Shown piece by piece: positions 12,188 to 15,898 of a DNA stretch of 64,000 bases. Within the stretch, counting starts at the first letter, position 1, and each line of letters opens with the position of its first letter. The notes beneath the pieces are model-generated. The model was not told the DNA's origin. It searched no databases and saw only the letters and a list, made by a program, of their open reading frames with translations. The position numbers and the translations under genes were made by a program. The stretch is from Cyathus striatus (lineage: Eukaryota; Basidiomycota; Agaricomycetes; Agaricales; Nidulariaceae): positions 1,240,001-1,304,000 of the forward strand of contig JAOVFP010000009.1 in NCBI GenBank assembly GCA_025738555.1. Direction: 5' to 3'.

Positions 12188-15100
12188 ATGTTTCCAGTAA
12201 GCTCAGCGTTTGTTGTCGCGAGAACAAATAAACTAACTTTCTTTAATAAAGCCATCGAGAACAAACATATTAATTGTAGGGGGAGGCCCCGCGGGAGCAT
12301 ACTCCGGTGCAGCTTTAGCTCGCGAAGGATTTGATGTGACCATCTTAGAAGCTAGCAAGTTTCCGAGGCAAATCTTCTTGTAGTGTTTTCTGTTGCACGT
12401 ACTCACACTGAGTTACAGATATCACATTGGAGAAAGTCTGCTTCCCTCCGTGCACAACTTCTTTTCGTTCATAGGAGCAGAAGAACGACTTAGGAGTTAC
12501 GGGTTCTGCCAGAAGGTAAAGTTACCTGCCATGTTATTTCTACTAGCAAGCTGGTCTTATACGGTGTTGTAGCCTGGTGCTGCTGTAAAATTTTCACAGC
12601 ACAAGGAAGAAGGATGTAAGTTAAATATGGAAGATTCCCGATTCCCTAATGTGTATACGTACTGATCATATGCACTTAGACGCCGACTTCATCAAGTATG
12701 ATTCTACCAACCACGCGTACAATGTAGTACGTAACTGCTCTTTTTACTTGTGAAGGAATAAGTCCATCTAATTTAAAAATAACCAGGTCAGGTCGGAATT
12801 TGACGAGTTCCTGCTTCACTATGCCGCCGAATGCGGAGCGAAGGTCTTCGAAGAAACGAAAGCGACTGACATAACTCTGCCAAAGAGCTCGTCTGAAGGC
12901 GAGTTTACTCCTGGATGTGTCCGGTATACTCAGCCTGGCGATAAGTCCGGCGAGATTCAATTTGATTACCTCGTCGATGCTTCTGGGAGAGCAGGAATTA
13001 TGTCTATGAAGGTTGGTTTTACATTCCCCACCTTATAGCGCACCAGTTTGCTGATGATGATTGTACGCTAGTACCTAAAGAACAGACAGATGAATAAAGA
13101 GCTTCGAAATGTTGCTATGTGGGGGTACTGGACCGGCCATCGCAAATATGCTGAGGGAACCACAAGGGAGAACGCCCCGTGGTTTGAAAGTTTGAAAGGT
13201 AATTTGAGTAATTGAGCTTGCGATACCTTGAAGTACTGACATAAGGACCGTTAGATGGAACCGGTTGGGTGTGGTTTATACCATTGCACACCGGAAAGGT
13301 AAGCTCATGACAGTCTTCCAGTCATATATACATCTAGATCTGATTCATTAAGGTGTCTGTGGGAGTTGTGACCGAAGCTGGAGTCCACGCTAAAAAAAAG
13401 TCGGATACTAACAAAACTAATAGGGGAAGCTACTCAGTTAAGGATCATTACCTGGATCAGCTCAAATTAACACCCGGAGTGATGAAGCTGTTAAACGGAG
13501 CAACTCTGGGTGAACCAACCGATACTCCGACAGTACGACTTGCCAGCGACTTCAGCTACAGTGCAGAGACGCATGCTGGTTATCACTATAGGATAGTTGG
13601 CGACGCCTCATGTAAGTTATCTGCAATATCTAAGAGTAAACTCGGGAATTAACACACCTTTGAAGCTTTTATCGACCCCCTTTTCTCTAGCGGAGTCCAT
13701 CTTGCACTTCTTGGAGGCTTAACGGCAGCGATCTCAATCGCTGCATCCATTAGGAAAGACTGCTCTGAATTTGACGCAGTCGATTTCCACAACAAGAAAG
13801 TGACGAATTCCTACAATAGGTTGGTTGGACCACGTATGATGTTGTTCTTGAGGTTTAACTCAACTCCACAGGTTCTTGTCTGTCGTTTCGAGTGCCTACA
13901 CCCAACTTAAACGCCAAGGCCAAGATGTATTAGCAGCTCCAGAAGAGAAGAACTTCAATCGCGCTATGGATATCTTCATGCCAGGTAAGAATCTCGGCTT
14001 TCGACTTTCACCTCTGCTAATATTTCGATAGTTATCAAAGGAGTAGCCGATACAGACTTCAATAGAGAGAACATACAAGATTTACGCAAAACGATGGAGT
14101 TCTGCCACGGTAAGTTGTCCTTCCGCTTGCTGAATGTAACGGTGAACTAAATCACTGTTAATGAGCAGAGATCAACTCCATGAGCGCAGACTCATTGGCT
14201 CGCGTAAGTTCCGCGGACAAAAACGCACCAAACCTTTACCAGGCATGCATTGCCATCGACAAAGACAATGCACCCACTCTTTACCAGGCGTGCGCAACTC
14301 CGGATAAAAATAACGCACCCAACCTTTACCAAGCATGCGCCTCTGTTGACAAGGAGAACGCACCCAACCTCTATCAAGCCAGTGCTGGTGTTGACGAAAA
14401 GAATTCGCCCTCCCTCTATCAAGCATGCGTTACTGCCAGTAAAGATAACGCGCCCAACCTCTACCAGGCATGCGTTTCTGTCGATAAAGAAAACGCACCC
14501 AACCTCTATCAAGCATGCGTTACTGCCGGCAAAGATAACGCGCCTAACCTCTACCAAGCCTGCGTCTCTGTCGACAAGGAGAATACACCCAACCTCTATC
14601 AAGCGTGTGCTGGTGTTGACAAAGACAACACACCCAACCTCTATCAAGCATGCGCTGGCGTTGATAAAGAGAATTCACCTAACCTCTATCAAGCGTGCGT
14701 CTCTGTCGACAAAGATAACGCACCCAACCTCTATCAAGCGTGCGCTGGTGTTGAAAAAGAGAACTCGCCTAACCTCTACCAAGCCTGCGTCTCTGTCGAC
14801 AAAGAGAATACGCCCAACCTCTATCAAGCGTGCGCTGGTGTTGACAAGGAGAACTCGCCTAACCTCTACCAAGCCTGTATCTCTATCGACAAGAATAACG
14901 CGCCCAATCTCTATCAAGCGTGCGTTTCTGTCGATAAAGAAAACGCACCCAACCTCTACCAAGCGTGCGCTGGTGTCGACAAAGAGAATTCGCCCAATCT
15001 CTACCAAGCATGCGTTTCGGTCGACAAAGAGAATGCACCCAACCTCTACCAAGCCTGTGCTGGTGTGGACAAAGAGAATGCGCCCAACCTCTATCAAGCG

Positions 15101-15898
15101 TGCGCTGGTGTTGACAAAGAGAACTCGCCTAACCTTTACCAAGCGTGCGTCTCTGTCGATAAAGAAAATGCACCCAACCTCTACCAAGCGTGTGCTGGTG
15201 TTGACAAAAACAACGCACCCAGCCTCTACCAAGCATGCGCCGGCCCAGATAAAAATAACGTACCCAATCTCTACCAGGCCGCGTCCGAAACCGAGAAGAT
15301 CCGTAGCATTCAGCATGCCTTCGAGCACGACGAAAAGGTACAAGCATTTTATCAAGGCTTATCACAAGCAGAGAAAGACAAAGTCCACACCTTTTTCATC
15401 GAGCGCACAAGTGGTACCGTGGAGAAACCTAACTTCGGGGATGATCTCTCTCAGGCGTTTGTCCATGCAAAAGCTGCAGAGAAAGAGAACCGTACTGATA
15501 CCCTGTCTGGATCCGACTCTGGGTTCCGATCCTTTTATCAGGCATTCGCGAAAACAACTAAGCCTGACCTTCTTCGCAACTTGTATAATGCTGTTTCTTC
15601 GTCCGTCAAGAACGATTACATCCATAGCCTCTATCAGTTTGCTACGCAGACTGTGCCAGGACGCTTTTCAGCCGATTCGGCGAGTGCACGGCTTGATGCT
15701 GTGGATAACAATGTAGGTGATAAGAGTGGAGAACGCTCCGTCCAATCTCCTGTTGGTACGCACAACTTGCAGGAAGCAAATTATAATGCACACCAGAACC
15801 TCCCTCTCTTCGGTCCCAAAGATCTGTTGAGCGACCACGTTAACGGTTTGATTCCTCGACTCGAGCAAGGGAGGCTTGGGCTTGTAGCATGCGCGTAA
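12188..15898 (+). CDS. Flavin-dependent halogenase with repeat insertion
   Basis: Predicted ~1010-residue FADH2-dependent halogenase, about twice the usual length. A 9-base first exon (12188-12196, MFP) joins exon 2 at 12252, giving [20 protein letters not shown], the FAD GxGxxG motif. A GC-AG intron (12368-12418) restores [14 protein letters not shown]. Further conserved parts are QKPGAAVKF (family catalytic Lys), [30 protein letters not shown] (WxWxIP signature) and [15 protein letters not shown]. After KTMEFCH (about residue 434), a spliced GAG codon leads in frame into 24 tandem 15-residue repeats (residues ~454-813, core LYQAC), then degenerate 16-residue relatives. The tail ends [11 protein letters not shown], which looks like an ordinary halogenase end, so the repeats appear inserted. 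No signal peptide is seen, so it is probably cytosolic. All splice sites are by eye. Confidence 0.9.
14225..15304 (+). repeat. 45-bp coding minisatellite, 24 units
   Basis: Twenty-four in-frame 15-codon units with consensus (A/S)PNLYQAC(V/A)(S/G)VDKEN. LYQA is invariant, and the Cys is kept in all but the fourth and the last units. Two unit types (CVSVDKEN and CAGVDKEN) tend to alternate, giving a partial 90-bp super-period. Neighbouring units differ often at synonymous third positions (TAC/TAT, TGC/TGT, GAC/GAT, AAA/AAG) while the protein is kept, which suggests selection on the peptide. The last unit ([15 protein letters not shown]) grades into the non-repetitive tail. Confidence 0.97.

What the first reader, a model, noticed from the sequence alone, without database searches (positions are those of the whole stretch)
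12188..15898. Halogenase carrying 24 tandem LYQAC peptides: a possible self-modifying enzyme-substrate fusion
Seen: an apparently complete flavin-dependent halogenase with FAD, KPGA and WxWxIP motifs is continuous in frame with 24 units of 15 residues, each with one Tyr and, in all but two units, one Cys, followed by a normal-looking halogenase end. Known: flavin halogenases often chlorinate or brominate electron-rich rings such as Tyr or phenols, and basidiomycete borosins fuse the modifying methyltransferase to its own peptide substrate. Inference: the repeats may be a covalently attached multi-copy substrate or carrier for halogenation, with peptides released later. Against this, no Kex2 dibasic sites separate the units, so a structural or scaffold role is also possible.
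Basis: partly seen in the sequence, partly recalled or inferred. Interest (0 to 1): 0.93.

Follow-up and report, generated by a model that had tools for sequence, protein, structure and literature searches.

The report
Halogenase carrying its own tyrosine repeats
A fungal enzyme of the kind that puts chlorine or bromine on phenol rings carries, inside its own tail, 24 near-identical peptides that each hold one such ring, so it may be built to modify itself and make a new class of halogenated peptides.

Summary
One 13-exon gene model (12188-15898, +; 1010 aa) encodes a RadH-type flavin-dependent halogenase with the catalytic motifs that were checked. Its C-terminal segment holds 24 tandem units of exactly 15 residues (14210-15289). 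Each unit has one Tyr; 22 of 24 have one Cys. The enzyme's own C-terminal end follows, so this is one gene, not two. Between units, synonymous change is near saturation, yet six positions (N, P, L, Y, Q, A) never vary, so the peptide is under strong purifying selection. Four degenerate copies downstream keep the Tyr. Of 254 relatives in hand (two of three hit lists were capped), one other (P0048, metagenomic) has a Tyr-rich tandem array in the same place, with a different unit. Other long linkers at this site are Tyr-poor. The RadH crystal paper places this C-terminal segment in the groove where carrier proteins are thought to dock beside the active site, and the flavin brominase SrpI brominates its own Tyr. 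Nearby genes include two O-methyltransferase-like genes, a P450 and an MFS exporter. Best reading: the array is halogenated in cis. Peptide release is unproven: no dibasic sites, no peptidase identified nearby. A structural array or a hypohalite sink remains possible.

The parts
12188..15898 (+). whole gene: RadH-type flavin-dependent halogenase with internal tandem Tyr array, 13 exons, 1010 aa
   Evidence: spliced translation open throughout; Trp_halogenase E 1.9e-26; RadH (PDB 8gu0) E 3.4e-108 over residues 4-418
12188..14109 (+). exons 1-12: halogenase catalytic part (residues about 1-434), with K74 codon 12513-12515, D323 codon 13674-13676 and F326 codon 13683-13685 (RadH K74, D325, F328)
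   Evidence: essential residues of RadH from PMC10377541 and PMC5637929 (passages)
14110..14168 (+). intron 12 (59 nt, GTAAGTTG...ATGAGCAG) that joins the halogenase body to the repeat exon
14169..15898 (+). exon 13: array, tail and halogenase C-terminal end
14210..15289 (+). 24 tandem units of 15 residues, consensus [15 protein letters not shown] (or ...ACVS); N5, P7, L9, Y10, Q11 and A12 invariant in 24 of 24
15347..15640 (+). tail with four degenerate copies of the core (FYQG at 15347, FYQA at 15533, LYNA at 15581, LYQF at 15629); Tyr kept in all four
   Evidence: 0 of 20000 shuffles of the 205-aa tail reach four with a pattern chosen after seeing the copies
15821..15895 (+). the halogenase's own C-terminal end ([25 protein letters not shown])
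   Evidence: alignment with relatives
4632..5633 (-). O-methyltransferase-like gene (part of it), neighbour
   Evidence: tblastn with the O-MT half of halogenase-O-MT fusion P0123, E 1.5e-12; not recognised by Pfam
8740..10700 (-). MFS exporter-like gene, neighbour
   Evidence: PF07690 E 2.5e-13 on joined pieces at 10319-10700; the rest of the span by reading (single ORFs gave no MFS match)
18812..20498 (-). cytochrome P450 gene, neighbour
   Evidence: PF00067 E 7e-29 on five joined exon pieces; two single ORFs of the span gave no match
21305..22712 (-). second O-methyltransferase-like gene, paralogue of the one at 4632-5633
   Evidence: tblastn E 1.6e-11 with P0123 O-MT half over 21723-22270, rest by reading; not recognised by Pfam

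Best explanation
The protein is a RadH-type halogenase whose C-terminal docking segment has become a covalently attached multi-copy phenol substrate. Shown: the enzyme has the FAD motif, the catalytic lysine, aspartate and phenylalanine, and 24 constrained peptides with one Tyr each, inserted in the C-terminal segment. Inferred: a separate flavin reductase supplies FADH2; HOCl or HOBr is relayed by Lys74; successive units dock in the groove beside the active site that the RadH C-terminus occupies; and each Tyr ring is halogenated ortho to its hydroxyl, in cis. The loaded protein then either stays a halotyrosine-bearing product or is cut into peptides (once per unit at the invariant Pro is conceivable) that the neighbouring O-methyltransferases, P450 and exporter handle. 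These last steps are speculative.
For: Catalytic motifs intact. Array inside the C-terminal segment of one gene. Tyr kept in 24 of 24 units and 4 of 4 degenerate copies; pN 0 with pS 0.66 in LYQA codons. P0048 has 56 Tyr in the 483 residues from the same helix on, 19 exact KYPTGY; AlphaFold2 gives its halogenase domain mostly high confidence and residues 404-904 pLDDT under 50. In 218 measured linkers (the window, P0048 and 216 others) the median Tyr fraction is 1.2% and the 95th percentile 3.1%, against 5.3% here and 11.6% in P0048; 21 other linkers of 150 aa or more have a median of 0.6% and a maximum of 2.9%. The RadH C-terminus lies in the groove where carriers are thought to dock on CndH (PMC10377541, passages). 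RadH needs a phenol and halogenates ortho to it (PMC5637929, passages). SrpI self-brominates Tyr that homology models place near its catalytic Lys (PMC10286304, passages). Tailoring and export genes lie nearby; among the ORFs scanned no scaffold synthase was seen nearer than the AMP-binding genes from about 51 kb on.
Against: No direct evidence of halogenation. Constraint on N, P, L, Q and A as well as Tyr could equally come from a folded repeat: the exon modelled alone gives a weak beta-solenoid-like ladder (pLDDT 55-72 over about the first ten units, mean 44.6), and the array's mean hydropathy is on the folded side of the Uversky boundary, barely (0.433 against 0.430). No dibasic sites. Peptidase_S9_N matches lie only on contigs C3 and C10. 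The nearest UstYa matches on C9 are about 0.92 Mb from the window. The neighbours suit small-phenol chemistry too. Only one other case was found, in an unnamed metagenomic contig whose last residues look frame-shifted, and a single origin of the two is disfavoured but not rejected (AU p 0.065). A few short linkers also reach 4-5% Tyr.
Confidence: 0.42

Rival explanations
1. An ordinary small-molecule halogenase of a specialised-metabolite cluster. The array is a folded or oligomerising spacer, lid or docking scaffold and is not a substrate.
For: Two O-methyltransferase-like genes, a P450 and an MFS exporter flank the gene, and the O-MTs resemble those fused to halogenases in ascomycetes. Six invariant positions spaced every 15 residues would suit stacked ladders; weak solenoid-like model. 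Some relatives, many of them polypores, have long inserts in the same linker.
Against: The other long inserts are Tyr-poor, and no Tyr-rich C-terminal tandem array was found in them. The second Tyr array (P0048) has irregular 14- and 8-residue units and is predicted disordered, so the shared feature is Tyr and not a shared fold. Why a spacer should need Tyr in 28 of 28 copies is unexplained.
Confidence: 0.31
2. A sacrificial sink: tethered Tyr and Cys (Tyr and Lys in P0048) soak up hypohalous acid that leaks from the active site and so protect enzyme or cell.
For: Tyr and Cys are highly reactive towards hypohalites (general chemistry, recalled). SrpI consumes oxidised bromine on its own Tyr (PMC10286304, passages). 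Both arrays are rich in such residues.
Against: A sink needs composition, not sequence, yet N5, P7, L9, Q11 and A12 are invariant. The 9 other halogenase regions found in the same genome show no array.
Confidence: 0.15
3. Neutral minisatellite growth in a tolerant linker.
For: The linker tolerates inserts in a number of relatives; tandem arrays grow by slippage (recalled).
Against: pN/pS 0.24 overall and pN 0 in LYQA with near-saturated synonymous change; all 24 units exactly 15 residues.
Confidence: 0.07
4. Two genes or a wrong join: the halogenase ends soon after 14109 and a separate repeat protein starts at the ATG at 14180.
For: An ORF of 572 aa starts at ATG 14180.
Against: The halogenase C-terminal end (GRLGL) lies after the array in the same exon; intron 12 has clean signals and keeps phase.
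Confidence: 0.05

Closest known systems
RadH-type fungal flavin-dependent halogenases (RadH and basidiomycete relatives)
   Same: Catalytic domain, GxGxxG, WxWxIP and Fx.Px.Sx.G motifs, K74/D323/F326, C-terminal GxLGL end
   Different: RadH acts on small phenols, and relatives have a short C-terminal linker (median about 98 residues by my measure); here it holds 24 Tyr units
Borosins (alpha-N-methyltransferase fused to its own core peptide; processed by S9 oligopeptidase)
   Same: Modifying enzyme and peptide in one polypeptide without a visible signal peptide; multi-copy cores are known in some (recalled)
   Different: Halogenase in place of methyltransferase; array followed by the enzyme's own end; no oligopeptidase match on this contig; modification not shown
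SrpI, proteusin RiPP brominase
   Same: Flavin enzyme that halogenates ribosomal peptides; shows Tyr self-bromination
   Different: Separate leader-guided Trp substrate; self-halogenation there is a side reaction
Dikaritins / KEX2-processed repeat proteins
   Same: Multi-copy peptide repeats in fungi, Tyr-bearing in several dikaritins
   Different: No signal peptide seen, no dibasic sites; their precursor is not fused to the enzyme (recalled)
P0048 (JGI metagenomic protein, 904 aa)
   Same: Halogenase with a Tyr-rich tandem array directly after the same helix
   Different: Unit KYPTGYEASKEAST (14 aa, with 8-aa variants), no Cys in the units, falls elsewhere in the quick tree

Membership tests
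RadH-type flavin-dependent halogenase | GxGxxG, WxWxIP and Fx.Px.Sx.G motifs | tested here: met
   GGGPAG at 13, WVWFIP at 223, FIDPLFSSG at 321
RadH-type flavin-dependent halogenase | essential Lys, Asp and Phe (RadH K74, D325, F328) | tested here: met
   K74, D323, F326 by alignment to 8gu0; the same columns are invariant with six relatives
RadH-type flavin-dependent halogenase | halogenating activity on a phenol | not testable with these tools
   needs enzyme assay
Borosin | SAM-dependent alpha-N-methyltransferase domain | tested here: not met
   Pfam scan gives Trp_halogenase and FAD domains and repeat artefacts; no methyltransferase domain
Borosin | peptide substrate in the same polypeptide as its modifying enzyme | tested here: inconclusive
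   array is in the same polypeptide; that it is a substrate is inferred
Borosin | clustered S9 prolyl oligopeptidase | tested here: not met
   PF02897 matches only on C3 and C10; six-frame exon search with few candidates, so a fragmentary gene could be missed
Dikaritin / KEP | dibasic Kex2 sites between units | tested here: not met
   0 in the array
Dikaritin / KEP | N-terminal signal peptide | tested here: inconclusive
   by reading only: N-terminus [18 protein letters not shown] runs straight into the FAD motif; no predictor run
Dikaritin / KEP | UstYa protein in the cluster | tested here: not met
   nearest PF11807 matches on C9 at 0.32 Mb, window at 1.24-1.30 Mb

The most novel reading that the evidence does not exclude
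This is the first autocatalytic halogenase-precursor fusion: a new class of ribosomal peptide in which a flavin halogenase halogenates an in-cis array of its own tyrosines. The architecture arose at least twice (LYQAC units here, KYPTGY units in P0048) by turning the C-terminal docking segment into a substrate array.
Probability: 0.3. Interest if true: 0.92.

Novelty: new variant of a known kind. Interest (0 to 1): 0.74.

Why it matters
Enzyme-substrate fusions in ribosomal peptide pathways are rare; the fungal examples I recall are N-methyltransferases. A halogenating one would add a chemistry, give a ready tool for tyrosine-selective halogenation of genetically encoded peptides, and explain why some fungal halogenases have repetitive tails. 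It also turns the proposal that the RadH C-terminus mimics a docked carrier protein into a direct test. My ten paper searches (open-licence PubMed Central papers only) showed, among the titles and abstract openings listed, no report of a halogenase with a tandem peptide array; some lists were capped (12 of 224, 12 of 76).

Tried and rejected
Origin of the unit from the enzyme's own C-terminal element. The motif [LM]YQ[GA], chosen after seeing it, occurs in the last 52 residues of 2 of 225 relatives, P0001 and P0183, which are the nearest rows by path in the tree (YQ[GA] without the L/M occurs in a third, P0189). A local alignment test did not support it: P0183 ranks 65th and P0001 98th of 225, and 744 of 2000 shuffled units score as well against P0183. 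Left as a loose lead only.

Single origin with P0048: the quick tree puts them apart, but the AU test gives p 0.065, so a shared origin is disfavoured and not rejected. The window row has a long branch (0.9).

Array in paralogues: the 9 other halogenase regions matched in the same genome show at most 15 of 45 matching positions in any six-frame periodicity window, against 45 of 45 in the window. One genome search found no other copy of the tail.

Weak Pfam hits on the repeats (DUF7012, Glyco_hydro_2, DUF6446, Mak_N_cap, RepB_primase and others; 0 stretches passing on their own) are taken as repeat artefacts. The low-confidence model of the repeat exon was not used for fold searches. Rfam: no match in the window at gathering scores. 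Second copy of the region in the assembly: a 2.1-kb stretch at 34600-36700 matches only itself; a search with 8700-19000 listed only two short 69-70% matches to 18635-18964, inside the P450 region, and oddly not the locus itself, so it is weak evidence.

Full report
What is there. The window lies on contig C9 of a 107-Mb assembly of 24 contigs, a basidiomycete judged by the relatives of this gene only. A 13-exon model from ATG 12188 to the stop at 15898 reads through without a stop to 1010 residues. Eleven introns are GT-AG and one is GC-AG; lengths are 47-69 nt. The catalytic part matches Trp_halogenase (E 1.9e-26) and the crystallised fungal phenol halogenase RadH (E 3.4e-108, residues 4-418). 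The best-scoring database relative is 52% identical over 43% of the query. The residues essential in RadH (K74, D325, F328: PMC10377541 and PMC5637929, passages read) are K74, D323 and F326 here.

The array. Exon 13 carries 24 units of exactly 15 residues at 14210-15289. Asn5, Pro7, Leu9, Tyr10, Gln11 and Ala12 are invariant in 24 of 24 units; Cys13 is present in 22. Mean pairwise synonymous difference is 0.64 and non-synonymous 0.156; for the LYQA codons these are 0.66 and 0. The array is therefore old and held by selection on the peptide. Downstream, the 205-residue tail holds four looser copies (FYQG, FYQA, LYNA, LYQF); none of 20000 shuffles reaches four, though the pattern was chosen after seeing them. 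Tyr is kept in all 28 copies; Pro and Cys are not. The last 25 residues are the normal halogenase end, so the array sits within the enzyme.

Is it unique? Three protein searches gave 254 proteins in hand (739 matches of which 120 were listed; 63, all listed; 145 of which 120 were listed). I scanned all 254 for tandem periodicity. The only other with a Tyr-rich C-terminal array is P0048, a 904-aa metagenomic protein. From the same helix on it has 483 residues with 56 Tyr and 19 exact KYPTGY, in units of 14 and 8 residues. Its final stretch looks frame-shifted, so its true length is uncertain. Its halogenase domain is predicted mostly with high confidence and residues 404-904 with pLDDT below 50. 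In a 76-row quick tree the two fall apart; the AU test against a single clade gives p 0.065. Searches were limited to proteins of about 556-1767 aa, 827-2632 aa and 497-1582 aa and to the candidates sharing most words, so further cases may be missed.

Control for the linker. I measured the linker between the PVIQG helix and the GxLGL end in 217 of 254 relatives (37 did not fit the patterns) plus the window: 218 in all. Median length was 97.5 and median Tyr fraction 1.2%, with a 95th percentile of 3.1% (the window and P0048 included). The window's linker has 5.3% Tyr and P0048's 11.6%. Of the other linkers of 150 aa or more, after I left out by name three gene-fusion models (P0047, P0036, P0125; the last has 2.6%), 21 remain, with median 0.6% and maximum 2.9%, the maximum being P0018, itself fused to another domain. 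Long inserts are thus found in a number of relatives and are Tyr-poor; tandem Tyr arrays are rare. A few short linkers also reach 4-5% Tyr (P0011, P0027, P0190).

Surroundings. About 7 kb upstream on the minus strand lies an O-methyltransferase-like gene (tblastn E 1.5e-12 with the O-MT half of a halogenase-O-MT fusion); between it and the halogenase lie a membrane protein (by reading; no Pfam match) and an MFS exporter (PF07690 E 2.5e-13). Downstream lie open stretches on the plus strand without Pfam match, a P450 (PF00067 E 7e-29) and a second O-methyltransferase-like gene. Pfam itself did not recognise either O-MT, and a genome-wide PF00891 search did not list them, so they rest on tblastn. 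Among the ORFs scanned, no scaffold synthase was seen nearer than the AMP-binding (NRPS-like) genes at 51-54 and 58-63 kb. Only 20 single ORFs and three sets of joined pieces were scanned, and only 12 kb upstream is in the window. Peptidase_S9_N matches lie on C3 and C10 only. The nearest UstYa on C9 is about 0.92 Mb away.

Mechanism. Two published facts give the idea a physical route. First, the RadH paper states that its C-terminus lies in the groove of CndH where carrier proteins are suggested to bind next to the active-site entry, and hypothesises that it plays a role like a docked carrier (PMC10377541, passages). The array here is inserted in that C-terminal segment. Second, the brominase SrpI brominates its own Tyr102 and Tyr110, which homology models place near its catalytic Lys (PMC10286304, passages), so the chemistry occurs. 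RadH requires a phenol and halogenates ortho to it (PMC5637929, passages), and Tyr is one. From these I infer cis halogenation of the array, confidence 0.42. Peptide release is a further step with less support: one invariant Pro per unit could serve an S9 oligopeptidase (such enzymes process cycloamanides and borosins, PMC9769878, passages), but no match was found on this contig.

What speaks against it. The same constraint could hold a folded repeat: the exon alone yields a weak solenoid-like ladder (mean pLDDT 44.6, 55-72 over about the first ten units), and hydropathy sits at the order-disorder border. AlphaFold2 on a single repetitive sequence tends to give such ladders (recalled), so I give it little weight in either direction. 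The cluster could make a small chlorinated, methylated phenol. A hypohalite sink would explain Tyr and Cys but not the invariant N, P, L, Q and A.

Known or new. The enzyme is a member of the RadH-type halogenases by sequence. It works, if the reading is right, like a borosin but is not one: there is no methyltransferase domain. It is not a dikaritin or KEP by the features tested: no dibasic sites, no UstYa nearby, and no signal peptide by reading. Ten literature searches in open-licence PubMed Central papers showed no halogenase with a tandem peptide array among the listed titles and abstract openings; papers outside that library were not searched.

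Noticed in passing
window 49990-54010 and 58600-62620: Two NRPS-like (AMP-binding) genes on the minus strand look like a tandem duplicate pair; the two stretches are 85% identical over 4066 bp.
   Followed up: partly
window 24027-31612: Five clusters of tandem units of about 155-307 bp containing tRNA T-arm-like sequence (CAGCACGGGAATCGAACCCGCTGT); ARAGORN calls one tRNA-Asn with anticodon ATT at 24353-24426, Rfam reports nothing at gathering scores. 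Possibly a tRNA-derived repeat family.
   Followed up: partly
window 56198-56655: Perfect head-to-tail duplication of 229 bp (100% over two copies), recent or an assembly effect.
   Followed up: no
window 967-1055: Four perfect copies of a 22-bp unit.
   Followed up: no
window 4632-5633 and 21305-22712: Two paralogous O-methyltransferase-like genes flank the halogenase on both sides; Pfam does not recognise either.
   Followed up: partly
G000 contigs C3 and C10: Peptidase_S9_N matches, and some UstYa matches, come in near-equal pairs on C3 and C10, which suggests duplicated or haplotypic contigs; a 2.1-kb stretch of the window has no second copy.
   Followed up: no
window 12368: Intron 2 needs a rare GC-AG donor (GCAAATCT) to keep the conserved PRYHIGE motif in frame.
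   Followed up: no
relatives P0026, P0050, P0151, P0167 and others: Several relatives have long inserts in the same C-terminal linker or elsewhere in the protein; P0167 has a 64-residue duplication and P0026 a 26-residue repeat in its N-terminal half.
   Followed up: partly
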